A DNA stretch of 64,000 nt from Trichormus variabilis 0441 (lineage in GTDB: Bacteria; Cyanobacteriota; Cyanobacteriia; Cyanobacteriales; Nostocaceae): the NCBI RefSeq assembly GCF_009856605.1, contig NZ_CP047242.1:3912001-3976000 (forward strand). Reading direction: 5' to 3'. The notes under the pieces are model-generated. The model was not told where the DNA came from. It made no database searches and saw only the letters and a list, made by a program, of their open reading frames with translations. Below are positions 57,242-64,000 of this stretch, piece after piece. Made by a program: the position numbers and the translations under genes. The number at the start of each line of letters is the position of its first letter. The stretch's first letter is position 1.

Positions 57242-58897
57242 ATGTTTCAGAAGCTAGATATTAAATCAATTTTTTTTAAATTGCTTCGTCTCCCGTTCAA
57301 ACTGCTACCATCTCAGTTAATTACTCTCACGGTTGTACTAACTCTCCTATTATTTTTGCCACAAACATGGGTCACTTGGCAAGCTTACAATGATTTCAAT
57401 AGTATTATCAAAAATGAATTAAGACTACAGAGTCTTAGTGAAAAAATTACTTATTATGATGAAGTTCTGACAATGTCAGCACGCATGAATGCTGTAACAG
57501 CTAATTCTGTGTGGGAAAGAAGGTATCGTCAATTTGAACCTTTATTAGATGCAGTAATTAAAGAATCTATTCAACTTGCGCCCGAAGTTTATAATAATCA
57601 AGATGCTAAGGAAACTGATTTAGCAAATAAACGTTTAGTGGAGATGGAATATAAATCTTTTGATTTAGTAAGAAAAGGCCAAGCACTAGCTGCGAGATCA
57701 CTTTTACTAAGTTCACAATATGAATCGGAGAAACGAAAGTACGCATCCGGTGTTAATAAAATCAATCAGGCGATCGCTATACTGATAGATGAAAGAGTCT
57801 TAAAATATAAAATATATCTATTGTGGTCAATTGGTGGCTCAGTTACTAGCTTGGCTTTTCTTATCCCTTCATGGTTATTGGTATTACGTTTATTAAAGAA
57901 TTATTTAACAACCAGTAAAATGGCTCAAATAACACTCAGGGATCTCAATTATGAATTAGAGATGCGCGTAGAAAAAAGAGCAAAAGAATTGCGATATAAA
58001 AATGATCAACTAACCCAAACATTACAAAAATTACAACAAACTCAGCTTCAATTAATTCAAACTGAAAAAATGTCATCTCTGGGTGAGATGGTGGCTGGTA
58101 TTGCCCATGAAATAAATAATCCGATTACTTTTGTTAAAAACAACGTTAGTTATGTCAAGGAATACTCCCAGGATTTATTAAACCTAATACGGAGTTATCA
58201 AGATTACTATACCCAACCCCCCGATATTATCCAAGTACAAATTAACGAGATAGATTTAGAATTTATCCAGGGAGATTTTATCAAAATCCTCAACTCTATA
58301 GAATACGGCACTGATAGAGTTGAGAAAATTGTTAAATCCCTACGTAATTTTTCTCGCCTTGATGAAGCCGAAATTAAATCAGTCGATATTCATGAAGGAA
58401 TTGATAGCACTTTGATGATTCTATCTCACCGATTGACAGCTATAGACAAACATCCAGAAATTTTGCTCATCAAAGAATATGCTTCATTACCATTGGTAGA
58501 ATGTTATCCTGGTTTACTCAATCAGGTTTTTATGAATATTCTTGTTAATGCCATAGATGCTTTACATGAATATAATTGGCAACGCACAGATGATGAAATT
58601 AAGAATAGCCCTTCTAGGATTCAGATTTGCACTCATCAAATGAATGAATCTTGGATACAAATTCGGATTATCGATAATGGTATAGGTATTCCAGAAAATA
58701 TTCGTGACAAATTGTTTAATCCATTTTTTACAACTAAGCCACTAGGTAAAGGTACGGGTATAGGATTATCAATTAGTTACCAAATTATTGTGGAGAAGCA
58801 TACTGGAAAGCTGTACTGTAATTCTACAGAAGAACAAGGTACAGAATTTGTGATTGAAATTCCAATTACTCAAAATTCGTCTACATTCACGAATTAG
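57242..58897 (+). CDS. Membrane sensor histidine kinase
   Basis: A 551-residue kinase. Membrane segments lie at about 24-44 and 188-215, enclosing a ~140-residue helical extracytoplasmic domain ([40 protein letters not shown]) of four-helix-bundle type. A coiled coil (about 232-275) leads to the kinase core with His289 in [13 protein letters not shown]-box [28 protein letters not shown] and [14 protein letters not shown]. The kinase core is of the same type as the soluble kinases at 22753, 24458 and 27202, but has a membrane sensor in place of a receiver. No response regulator is adjacent, so its partner is encoded elsewhere. Confidence 0.93.
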
Positions 58898-58999
58898 ATA
58901 ACGCTATTTAACAATTGTCGAAGTAAAAATAGGTGTCCCTGGGCTTTGGGGTTTTTGGACAAGTCTAATAGTTTCTTGACAAACTACTAGTAGAGACTG

Positions 59000-60567: not shown

Positions 60568-60754
60568 ATGCCATACCCCGTACCCTTCTAAAATATGCCA
60601 TTTAAAACGCCATTCGGAATCGCTTATTTAATGCCTTTAAATATGGCATTGTTTTGAAGATATGGGGGTATGTCTACTTGTGGTAAAAATAGTGTTTTTG
60701 CTTGCCACTAACACAGAAAAATAAAGGAAGCAATATGTATAAATTATTACAAGC
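60568..60754. other. Spacer between KGK gene and transposon-like end
   Basis: Holds an inverted pair, AATATGCCATTTAAA near 60590 and TTTAAATATGGCATT near 60640, that may terminate the KGK transcript. Otherwise featureless AT-rich DNA. Confidence 0.45.
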
Positions 60755-60991
60755 TGTACATTCACATATTAGATGTCGCTATTTAACAAATTAATGTCGC
60801 AAGCTTTAAAGCATAAAACCCTTTCCCCGTAAGGATTTTATAGATTTATATGATTGTATAAAAGTGACTAGAGATTTTTCATGGTTTTCACAAATTGAGG
60901 TCGCAAACCCGATAATTTCACAATTTAAGAGTCGTTTATTTTCTTCAGCCAGACAACCTAACGTTAAACGGCTTCACGAATTAGATGTCGC
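60755..60991 (+). mobile_element. Tn7-like (CAST-like) transposon end with five putative TnsB sites
   Basis: The terminal hexamer TGTACA (60755-60760) is followed directly by repeats of a 19-base motif, consensus TTCACAAATTAGATGTCGC: 60761-60779, 60783-60800, 60887-60904, 60917-60935 and 60973-60991. All copies are in the same orientation, with the two outermost 22 bases apart and the others more spread. TGTACA ends with reiterated ATTAATGTCGC-type TnsB sites are a hallmark of cyanobacterial Tn7-like elements, including type V-K CRISPR-associated transposons. No TnsB/TnsC/TniQ or Cas gene is in the window, so the other end and machinery must lie to the right, or this is a remnant end. Confidence 0.78.
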
Positions 60992-61392
60992 ATTCCTGAG
61001 AGTGGCAATATATTTACTTACTCTAAAAGATAAAACCTGATTAATGGCAGTATGGCTGCATCAGTGCTGGAAAATTAACTGTCTTATCCTATTTCAGTGT
61101 ATAACTAAAAAAATTAGCTACTAATCTTACATAACGAGGTTTCAGTTGTGGCGTTTCAACCTGAAGACATTCTAGAGGGTGGCCGTTCGATTCGTCCTTT
61201 CCTTCCAGAACTTTTAGGAAATGATGCGGTTCAAGTAGACAAGCAATTGGCTGAACTTTTAGCAAAAGCTATGGCTGGACAGCAAGTCGAGCAGCAGATT
61301 TTAGAAATACTCAAAAGTCACCCAGATACTCGCAATTGGATAGCGGAGTTTCTTAGTAATACTAAATTGGGAAAGGAAGTATTAATTGAATA

Positions 61393-62522
61393 ACTGAGGT
61401 CAAATTTGGCAAATCCAATCAAACCCAACCTTGCCATGAACAATTTGAGGGTGAGACATTAACCATTGACAACGAGAAATTAACACAGTTTCTAGTTCAT
61501 CGAGAGTAGAAAACATCTGATTAGCAACAGCTTCACGTAGAAGCGACCAAACACACTCAGTCGGTTGGAGTTGAGGTGTATAAGCAGGCAGAGGAAACAG
61601 AATGATACCAGCTGGCAACATTAATTGTTTACTGGTATGCCAACCAGCTTGATCAACAAGCAAAACAATGATTTTGTGATGATGAGGATTGACTTCAGCG
61701 GCAAAAGCATCTAAAGCCATTTGCATGACAGCAATGTTGACTCTGGGTAAAATCAAGAAAAAACTCTCGCCAGTAGCTGGATGGACAAATCCATAAGTAT
61801 AAAGCCATTGGTAACGAGTGCGATGCACAGCATTGGGACGATGACCTACTGGTGTCCAAACTCGACGGACGATGGGTTTGAGGCCTAATCGAGCTTCATC
61901 TTCTGCCCAAACTTCAACTGATTTGTGCGGATGGAGGAAACGTAACAATCGCACAAACTCCGTTAACTCAGTTTTAAACATCTGTCTTTGAACAAAAGTT
62001 GCCGCCTCAGTATGCAGAGGTCGTGGTTGTTGCAGACTAAATCCTAGCCTTTTGAGGTAATCCCAAGCTGTAGTGACATGGAGTGTAATTCCAAACTGTA
62101 CTCGGATCAATTCCCCTACTTTTGGCGCACTCCATAACCCCCCATCTTCTGGTGGTGAAGCTAACCTTTGGCGCAACCACTGTTGTTGCTCGTTTGTGAG
62201 TGCAAGTTTTTTTCCTCCTGGTTTCAGTTTCTGTTGATTGATGATTCCGTTTGCTCCTAGCTTGTTGTATCGCCGCACGATTTTTCTCACCCAGTCCCCT
62301 GAGAATCCCACAATCTCTGCTACCTTTTGCGCTGACAACTGTGGTTGTTGATTGAGCAATTTAATCACTAACCATCGGGTTTTCTCTTGTGCATCTTCAC
62401 ATCGGCGATAACTTTGTTCTATTTCTTCTGTTGATAGATGCTCTGTTAGTTTTATCCTGGGACGTACCATTTTTCTAGCCTTTTTCCCTCTGCTTCAAAT
62501 GATACTACCTTTCCCTATTCAG
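61393..62522 (-). mobile_element. IS630-family insertion sequence, about 1130 bp
   Basis: Bounded by TA on each side (61391-61392 and 62523-62524), as expected for TA-targeting IS630/Tc1 elements. The left end starts ACTGAGGTCAAATTTGG and the right end, read inward on the minus strand, starts CTGAATAGGGAAAGG. Inverted-repeat similarity is weak beyond CTGA, so the borders rest mainly on the TA duplication and restored reading frame. It contains one intact transposase gene. Confidence 0.75.
61400..62470 (-). CDS. IS630-family transposase
   Basis: A 356-residue DDE transposase. The N-terminal ~140 residues hold helix-turn-helix segments (QLSAQKVAEIVGFSGDWVRK, RYNKLGANGIINQQKLKPGG) and a winged-helix region. 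The catalytic domain has the first Asp in VWAEDEARLGLKP, the second in IVLLVDQAGWHTSK and the final Glu in AYTPQLQPTECVWSLL. It is in a single uninterrupted frame, unlike many IS630 relatives that need frameshifting, so the element may still be active. It is oriented opposite to the gene it interrupts. Confidence 0.93.
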   Translation of the reverse strand: MVRPRIKLTEHLSTEEIEQSYRRCEDAQEKTRWLVIKLLNQQPQLSAQKVAEIVGFSGDWVRKIVRRYNKLGANGIINQQKLKPGGKKLALTNEQQQWLRQRLASPPEDGGLWSAPKVGELIRVQFGITLHVTTAWDYLKRLGFSLQQPRPLHTEAATFVQRQMFKTELTEFVRLLRFLHPHKSVEVWAEDEARLGLKPIVRRVWTPVGHRPNAVHRTRYQWLYTYGFVHPATGESFFLILPRVNIAVMQMALDAFAAEVNPHHHKIIVLLVDQAGWHTSKQLMLPAGIILFPLPAYTPQLQPTECVWSLLREAVANQMFSTLDELETVLISRCQWLMSHPQIVHGKVGFDWICQI

Positions 62523-62703: not shown

Positions 62704-63609
62704 ATGCCAACCAAATTTTTGGAAAGTCTGGGTGGAAAACTTGCAGAAAACTGGGCTGCAAACATACTGACACCAGCCTTTGTCTTTTGGATGGGGGGAC
62801 TATTAGCTTGGGTCTGGCGTTTTGGTCGAAAACCTTTGGAAGATTGGCTCAAGCAGCAACCAGAATCTTTGCTAATTGCTGTTACGGTAACTGGTTTGCT
62901 GGTGATTGCTGTCTCAGCTTTTGTGGTTCAAAGGTTTGATTTATCTGTTTTAAGATTTTTAGAAGGCTATTGGTCTCGGTGGTTGCAACCTTTTCGACGC
63001 TGGATGATACAGCAACAAGAGCAAGATTTTAAACGAAAAGATAAGCGTTGGCAAACTCTGGCTGATGAAAAAGATATAACTAATGAGGAATTGGAGGAAT
63101 ATGTGATGTTAGATGGACAACTTATGCAGTTTCCATCTCAAATTAATAGATTCATGCCTACAAAGTTAGGCAACATTCTTAGAGCGGCTGAAAGCCGTCC
63201 TTATGATAAGTATGGCTTGGATGCTGTAATTTGCTGGTCTCGCCTCTGGCTAATATTACCAGATGGGGTAAAGAAAGAATTACAGGAAGCACGGTCAAGT
63301 TTGAACACAGCAGCCCGTTTTTGGCTCTGGAGTTTGCTGTTTATCGTATGGGCTGTTTGGGCTTGGTGGGCTGTTCTTGCTGGGTTGCTGGGGATGGCAT
63401 TTGCTTATAACTGGGCTGTTGATGCAGCAGGAGTCTACTGTAGCTTGTTGGAGTCCGCTTTTGATTTGTACCGCTTAGAACTTTATAAATCCCTTCGTTG
63501 GCCAATACCTATTAATCCTAAGCAAGAGCGAGAGTTAGGTAAGCAATTGACAAATTATTTATGGCGAGGTTCTGATGACGACAGACCAATATTTAAGCCT
63601 CTACAGTGA
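62704..63609 (+). CDS. Multi-pass membrane protein of unknown function
   Basis: A 301-residue protein. Hydrophobic segments lie at about 22-40, 55-76, 205-222 and 224-245, leaving a large polar cytoplasmic middle (about 85-200) with a charged helical part (QQEQDFKRKDKRWQTLADEK) and SRPYDKYGLDAVICWSRLWL. I do not recognise the family. It begins seven bases after the end of the split cargo gene and is followed by a caspase-family gene, so the three are probably one transcription unit. It may anchor or be the membrane effector of the system; this is inference only. Confidence 0.7.
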   Translation: MPTKFLESLGGKLAENWAANILTPAFVFWMGGLLAWVWRFGRKPLEDWLKQQPESLLIAVTVTGLLVIAVSAFVVQRFDLSVLRFLEGYWSRWLQPFRRWMIQQQEQDFKRKDKRWQTLADEKDITNEELEEYVMLDGQLMQFPSQINRFMPTKLGNILRAAESRPYDKYGLDAVICWSRLWLILPDGVKKELQEARSSLNTAARFWLWSLLFIVWAVWAWWAVLAGLLGMAFAYNWAVDAAGVYCSLLESAFDLYRLELYKSLRWPIPINPKQERELGKQLTNYLWRGSDDDRPIFKPLQ

Positions 63610-63714
63610 AAGTGACTGTATTATGGGCAATGTCTCTAAAAAATCTCAGTAAAATTAAACACTCGCTAAAATTTTGATAAATTTTCCCAATTTCACCAAA
63701 AAGTCCCATATTAA

Positions 63715-64000
63715 TGAGTAGAGATGCTTTAGTTGTTGGCATTAATAAGTATAGTTTTGCAGGCTTGTCAGGTTTAAAATCGCCTGCTAAGGATGCAGAA
63801 GCGATCGCCAAGCGACTTAGTGAAGCTGGAAATTTTCATGTCAAGCGATCGCCACAATTCTTAGATCCGTTTGAAGATCATGCACCACGGGTAGCAGCAA
63901 ATCAAGAACTCAAGCTGGCAGACTTAGAAAAGGCTTTAGAAGAATTATTTTATCCTGAAGGCAGGAGCATCCCAGATACCGCGCTGTTTTATTTCTCTGG
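63715..64000 (+). CDS. Caspase-family (C14) protease, N-terminal part only
   Basis: The frame from ATG 63715 is open to the window edge (95 codons). It reads MSRDALVVGINKYSFAGLSG, LKSPAKDAEAIAKRLSEAGN and DTALFYFSG at the edge, the standard metacaspase/orthocaspase p20 start. The LVVGINKY and KDAEAIAKRL elements and the beta-strand LFYFSG preceding the catalytic HG are typical. The catalytic His and Cys themselves lie beyond base 64000. Bacterial caspases of this type are often proteases in conflict or cell-suicide modules. Its neighbours are the membrane protein and the split zinc-ribbon-like gene. Confidence 0.88.

What the first reader, a model, noticed from the sequence alone, without database searches (positions are those of the whole stretch)
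60755..60991. Tn7-like / CAST-like transposon end
TGTACA is followed by five same-orientation copies of a motif close to TTCACAAATTAGATGTCGC, the two outermost 22 bases apart. Terminal TGTACA plus serial TnsB sites is the known design of cyanobacterial Tn7-like elements including type V-K CAST. All genes to the right within the window would be cargo.
Basis: partly seen in the sequence, partly recalled or inferred. Interest (0 to 1): 0.82.

Follow-up and report, generated by a model that had tools for sequence, protein, structure and literature searches.

The report
RNA-guided transposon with spare transposase core
The repeats mark one end of a 31-kilobase CRISPR-guided jumping element parked beside a tRNA gene in a cyanobacterium; that type of element is known, but this one carries an extra gene for a cut-down, apparently inactive copy of its own transposase that recurs in related elements and for which I found no earlier description.

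Summary
Window 60755 is the outer base of a type V-K CRISPR-associated transposon (CAST) of 30,923 bp (C1:3972755-4003677; it runs 27.7 kb past the window). It has TGTACA ends with five and four inverted TnsB-type sites, tnsB, tnsC, tniQ, cas12k, a CRISPR array, and a 17-nt anchor spacer matching tRNA-Thr (16/17, PAM GTC, 61 nt from the end). By published convention the window end is the RIGHT end. The flanks share 6 bp (ACAAGC), not the usual 5. This part is a new member of a known kind. The unusual part is a 224-aa gene two bases upstream of tnsB. It encodes only the TnsB catalytic core, with catalytic D287 replaced by N. I set apart 46 such core-only proteins, in three tree groups; 22 of 46 lack a triad residue, against 0 of 95 full-length TnsB. 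Nine uninterrupted ones with known context all sit at transposition or cas12k genes. An open frame, dN/dS 0.47, a kept RNase-H fold and a promoter box otherwise seen only before cas12k argue for a working protein, most likely a non-catalytic partner or inhibitor of TnsB. Function is untested.

The parts
60749..60754 (+). ACAAGC, outer flank of the right end; the same 6 bp follow the left end (C1:4003678-4003683)
60755..60760 (+). terminal TGTACA of the right end (RE) of the V-K CAST
60761..60779 (+). TnsB-type end site 1 (outermost)
60783..60800 (+). TnsB-type end site 2
60887..60904 (+). TnsB-type end site 3
60917..60935 (+). TnsB-type end site 4 (diverged)
60973..60991 (+). TnsB-type end site 5
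61148..61393 (+). cargo ORF, 81 aa, no Pfam match; a relative lies at the same place in the sister element of Nostoc flagelliforme
61400..62470 (-). IS630-like transposase ORF (DDE_3), absent from the aligned part of the sister element
62704..63609 (+). cargo ORF, 301 aa, no Pfam match
63714..64000 (+). start of a 1557-aa WD40-repeat cargo protein that runs off the window; the element continues to C1:4003677

Best explanation
The window holds the right end of a complete type V-K CAST. Shown by sequence: two inverted multi-site ends, tnsB-tnsC-tniQ, cas12k, a CRISPR array, and an anchor spacer that matches the neighbouring tRNA-Thr beside a GTN PAM at the published distance. Inferred from the known mechanism: Cas12k with the anchor crRNA marked the tRNA gene, TniQ and TnsC bridged to TnsB, and TnsB joined the TGTACA ends about 61 bp from the PAM. 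The transposase operon begins with an extra gene (C1:3984414-3985088) that encodes only the TnsB catalytic-core domain, with the second triad residue changed. Shown: core-only borders, predicted RNase-H fold, purifying though relaxed selection against the sister element, and an upstream box found elsewhere in the genome only before cas12k. Inferred: it works through protein contacts, most likely by docking into TnsB synaptic complexes, in which two of four core domains are normally non-catalytic, and so damps or tunes transposition or hinders rival elements. My odds: about 0.98 for the CAST, about 0.7 that the core gene makes a working protein, about 0.4 for the brake model.
Against: No expression, protein or transposition data. 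The flank repeat is 6 bp, not 5. The sister element in N. flagelliforme has the same core gene but frame-disrupted tnsB, tniQ and cas12k, so its open core frame may partly reflect recent decay. dN/dS of the core gene is three to four times that of tnsB and tnsC, and one pair (L198/L199, 0.72 [0.33-2.15]) is uninformative. 24 of 46 core-only proteins keep all three triad residues. The core lacks the regions by which TnsB binds ends and TnsC, which leaves few routes of action. In the third group, L200 shows TnsB similarity running upstream across a stop, as a decaying tnsB would. Only 7 of 217 family genomes had an uninterrupted core-only frame (cut list).
Confidence: 0.88

Rival explanations
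1. The core-only gene is a decaying fragment of a second tnsB with no function.
For: Relaxed dN/dS; two family genomes have interrupted core-only frames, G438 and G513; L200 has TnsB similarity upstream across a stop; P0171 groups with full-length TnsB and is probably a plain fragment.
Against: No stop where 7.4 are expected; dN/dS interval below 1 for two of three same-group pairs; similar start and end in distant members; no leftover TnsB pieces at 6 tested genes; 32 rows form one supported clade of core-only proteins.
Confidence: 0.27
2. The core protein is a positive structural subunit that fills the non-catalytic positions of the TnsB complex and helps transposition.
For: Two of four TnsB core domains are non-catalytic with a structural role (passages); the fold is kept; it sits in the tnsB operon.
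Against: The structural protomers also use their NTD, middle and oligomerisation domains, which the core lacks (passages); ShCAST, AcCAST and other CASTs work without it (recalled and passages); most V-K elements seen here have none.
Confidence: 0.15
3. The core protein is a weapon against rival Tn7-like elements in the same cell.
For: This genome has three cas12k genes over the family cut-off plus a remnant; a V-K-type core sits before a TnsA-TnsB fusion gene of another Tn7-like type in two genomes; a core gene looks exchanged between diverged CASTs (dS 0.10 against 1.70 for the adjacent tnsB).
Against: No specificity data; the TnsA-TnsB fusion is far from V-K TnsB (27%).
Confidence: 0.18
4. 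The end belongs to a non-CRISPR Tn7-like or MITE-like element.
For: None after the search.
Against: cas12k, array and anchor spacer lie between matching ends.
Confidence: 0.01

Closest known systems
Type V-K CASTs (ShCAST, AcCAST, AnCAST)
   Same: TGTACA ends with inverted TnsB sites, tnsB-tnsC-tniQ, cas12k, array, truncated repeat and anchor spacer to a tRNA gene, GTN PAM, left end by the tRNA
   Different: Extra TnsB-core gene first in the tnsB operon; 11.6 kb of cargo between right end and tnsB, where the literature passages put tnsB first; an HTH_3 (Xre-like) regulator before cas12k instead of MerR or Arc types; 6-bp flank repeat
ShTnsB, V-K transposase
   Same: The core protein aligns to residues 189-411 with the same predicted fold
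   Different: No NTD1/2, no oligomerisation domain, no C-terminal hook; D287 is N; the loop DGGKDF is lost
Inhibitor transposases such as Tn5 Inh and the P-element 66-kDa repressor (recalled, not looked up)
   Same: A partial transposase made beside the full one, thought to poison multimers
   Different: Here a separate, diverged gene for the core alone, not an alternative product of the same gene
Type I-B2 or I-D-like Tn7 elements with TnsA-TnsB fusion
   Same: Two of them carry a core-only gene of the same clade directly before the transposase gene
   Different: Different transposase, protein-guided tniQ genes, no cas12k found in the stretch read

Membership tests
Type V-K CAST | Cas12k effector | tested here: met
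   902 bits, cut-off 150; Pfam has no model that hits it
Type V-K CAST | tnsB, tnsC, tniQ in this order, no tnsA | tested here: met
   none of 14 proteins of the element scanned with Pfam matches TnsA; shorter ORFs were not scanned
Type V-K CAST | TGTACA ends with inverted arrays of TnsB sites | tested here: met
   5 and 4 sites
Type V-K CAST | CRISPR array with truncated repeat and anchor spacer to a tRNA gene, GTN PAM 46-82 nt from the left end | tested here: met
   17 nt, 16/17, PAM GTC, 61 nt; ranges from passages
Type V-K CAST | tracrRNA downstream of cas12k | tested here: inconclusive
   a repeat-complementary stretch is present (pair I4); no Rfam family matched; no RNA data
Type V-K CAST | 5-bp target duplication | tested here: inconclusive
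   flanks share 6 bp, ACAAGC; in-phase 5-mers CAAGC and ACAAG differ; no empty site found
Type V-K CAST | RNA-guided transposition | not testable with these tools
   needs an assay
TnsB transposase (for the extra gene) | RNase-H-like core fold | tested here: met
TnsB transposase (for the extra gene) | D-D-E triad | tested here: not met
   D205 kept, D287 is N106; E321 unsettled between alignments
TnsB transposase (for the extra gene) | N-terminal DNA-binding domains and C-terminal TnsC hook | tested here: not met
   protein covers ShTnsB 189-411 only; no remnant around it; hook is 570-584 (passages)

The most novel reading that the evidence does not exclude
Stand-alone, often catalytically eroded TnsB cores are an undescribed accessory family of Tn7-like transposons: derived from TnsB more than once, swapped between V-K CASTs and a TnsA-TnsB-fusion element type, expressed with the transposition genes, and acting as protein brakes, partners or poisons of transposition.
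Probability: 0.42. Interest if true: 0.75.

Novelty: new variant of a known kind. Interest (0 to 1): 0.57.

Why it matters
V-K CASTs are used as programmable insertion tools. Their known natural restraint is transcriptional (CvkR and Arc-type regulators; passages and one section of PMC9938897). A natural TnsB-core partner would be a protein-level control on RNA-guided insertion, a handle to tune it, and a direct test of what the non-catalytic TnsB core domains do. It would also show that transposase fragments are kept and traded as genes of their own.

Tried and rejected
Rejected: ordinary dispersed repeats; the extra motif at 58886 as a third end (weak hits are at chance level). PF00665 does not list this element's TnsB, so missing rve hits were not used as evidence.

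Led nowhere: no clean empty site. Relatives have other sequence beside the tRNA-Thr, and the left flank lies elsewhere; in G526, the relative with the best match to both flanks, they are about 61 kb apart on one contig. tblastn of two core proteins against plasmids gave 1038 and 1458 records, all under 60% identity, of which I saw 40 each; none listed is a close core-only gene. Viral contigs gave one partial hit. A script for the ends of the other two V-K CASTs of this genome found no convincing pair. One paper search returned nothing.

Results against a simple story: holding all 47 core-only rows as one clade is rejected (p-AU 6.5e-05), but the set contained P0171, probably a TnsB fragment, and was named after the sequences were seen. 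Full-length rows in the trees were those with a hit of at least 186 residues, a frame of at least 420 codons, no stop in the aligned part and a unique sequence (95); one search used 50 of these 95. An early note of mine called the E residue of this gene lost; later alignments disagree (pairs it with E142, one search does not), so I report it as unsettled. The test for leftover TnsB pieces covered 6 core genes (own, L194, L195, L196, L198, L213) and not L197, L199, L200 or L201.

Full report
Observation. Window 60755-60991 contains TGTACA and five same-orientation copies of the motif at 60761, 60783, 60887, 60917 and 60973, the outer two 22 bases apart. In the 7.1-Mb genome a degenerate form has three perfect hits, two here and one inverted at C1:4003653-4003671; weaker hits are no more common than for a reversed control, 14 hits in all against 20.

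The element. The window is C1:3912001-3976000. The far end at C1:4003677 mirrors this one: TGTACA, then four sites starting 7, 28, 49 and 86 nt from the outer base. The element is 30,923 bp and ACAAGC flanks both sides. Inside, in genome coordinates (subtract 3,912,000 for window coordinates): right end; 81-aa ORF; IS630-like transposase; 301-aa ORF; two large WD40 proteins, the second with nSTAND1; TnsB-core gene 3984414-3985088; tnsB 3985091-3986836; tnsC 3986846-3987673; tniQ 3987675-3988196; three genes that match HmaA, HmaB and HmaC of a defence system at 1720, 1068 and 1119 bits; an 83-aa HTH_3 regulator facing away from cas12k; cas12k 4000567-4002498; the array; left end. Gene positions are and families.

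How it got there. After cas12k come three near-identical CRISPR repeats, one diverged repeat and further repeat-like units, then a truncated repeat and a 17-nt spacer that matches the tRNA-Thr gene just outside the end at 16 of 17 positions, with PAM GTC and 61 nt between PAM and end. Passages of PMC9938897 describe this layout for cyanobacterial V-K CASTs: anchor spacer of usually 17 nt, GTN PAM, 46-82 nt with one exception, left end beside the tRNA, tnsB first from the right end. By that convention the window end is the right end. Among 10 relatives printed, by eye, L176, L177 and L185 show whole or decayed CAST-like ends beside the same tRNA-Thr, and L179 a weak trace. A sister element in Nostoc flagelliforme sits at a tRNA-Met with its own anchor, 16 of 17 by eye, which suggests retargeting by a change of anchor.

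The extra gene. Its product (224 aa) aligns to ShTnsB 192-403. Three searches restricted by size returned 11, 191 and 166 proteins, of which the best 11, 120 and 120 were listed; many are TnsB fragments. I set apart 47 rows: 23 proteins picked by eye for shared borders, 5 from loci, and 19 by length alone (205-232 aa). One of the 19, P0171, groups with full-length TnsB and is left out below. Full-length TnsB cores keep D-D-E in 95 of 95; core-only rows keep it in 24 of 46. None of the 46 loops printed and 109 reads DGGKDF. The gene here has N in place of D287. In a careful tree 32 rows form one clade (support 96/93), 10 form a second (99/95), three fall with TnsB of another Tn7-like type, and L197 is unplaced. 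One origin for all is rejected, with the caveat given under Tried and rejected.

Genomic context. Of 217 family genomes, 7 hold 8 uninterrupted core-only frames of 218-244 codons, and two more genomes (G438, G513) hold interrupted ones (the list was cut and few candidates per genome were scored, so these are lower bounds). Of 388 genomes sampled from the order, 3 hold one at E up to 1e-60, one of them (G147) new. All 9 uninterrupted genes, found by sequence and not by context, lie at transposition genes: before tnsB (G000, G459), before a TnsA-TnsB fusion gene followed by tnsC and two tniQ genes (G456, G464), after tniQ (G460, G526, G147), after tnsC of another Tn7-like type (G464), or 0.65 kb from cas12k (G380) (Pfam was run on the G456 genes, and the G464 copy is collinear). 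L066, L068 and L073 are taken to be the same strains as G459, G526 and G460, by equal contig lengths, and are not counted twice.

Mechanism. Passages of PMC9527255 say that two of the four TnsB protomers in the strand-transfer complex have non-catalytic core domains with a structural role. Passages of PMC9371665 place the visible TnsC contact in residues 570-584. A free core could join or block the TnsB assembly but should not bind TnsC through the hook or the ends through the N-terminal domains. I favour a brake, for self-control or against rivals, over a helper. This is inference.

Literature. Seven searches (listings) and passages of six papers (PMC9938897, PMC11406308, PMC8649781, PMC10293859, PMC9527255, PMC9371665), plus section 7 of PMC9938897, showed no report of a core-only TnsB gene. 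The library lacks most subscription papers and bioRxiv holdings of its own, and the V-K preprint of Hsieh and Peters was seen only as a citation, so novelty is not proven.

Noticed in passing
G000 C1:2711863, 2913814, 4000576 and 1206122: This genome has three cas12k genes over the family cut-off and one broken remnant, so three V-K CASTs probably share the cell.
   Followed up: partly
L035:15194-15445 (-): The regulator before cas12k is of HTH_3 (Xre-like) type, not MerR or Arc. Among 29 cas12k starts in fetched loci it was found only for this element (three overlapping loci) and the N. flagelliforme sister. Possibly a fourth regulator type of V-K CASTs.
   Followed up: partly
L176, L177, L179, L185: The tRNA-Thr site carries whole or decayed CAST-like ends in several relatives: a repeated landing site (by eye).
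   Followed up: partly
L029:13364-13390 and L210: Sister elements target tRNA-Thr and tRNA-Met with different anchors, each with one mismatch to its protospacer.
   Followed up: partly
L029:13157-13360: Diverged repeat-like units lie between the array and the anchor; they could be old or alternative guides.
   Followed up: no
G000 C1:4317721 and C3:242266: Two TnsB-like genes with the same frame length and score on chromosome and a second replicon suggest a recent move of another Tn7-like element.
   Followed up: no
window 61355-61395: A short stretch at the edge of the IS630-like gene recurs at 11 other places in the genome, as an active insertion sequence would.
   Followed up: no
window 58886-58904: An end-like motif with 3 mismatches at the stop of a histidine-kinase gene; probably chance.
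   Followed up: partly
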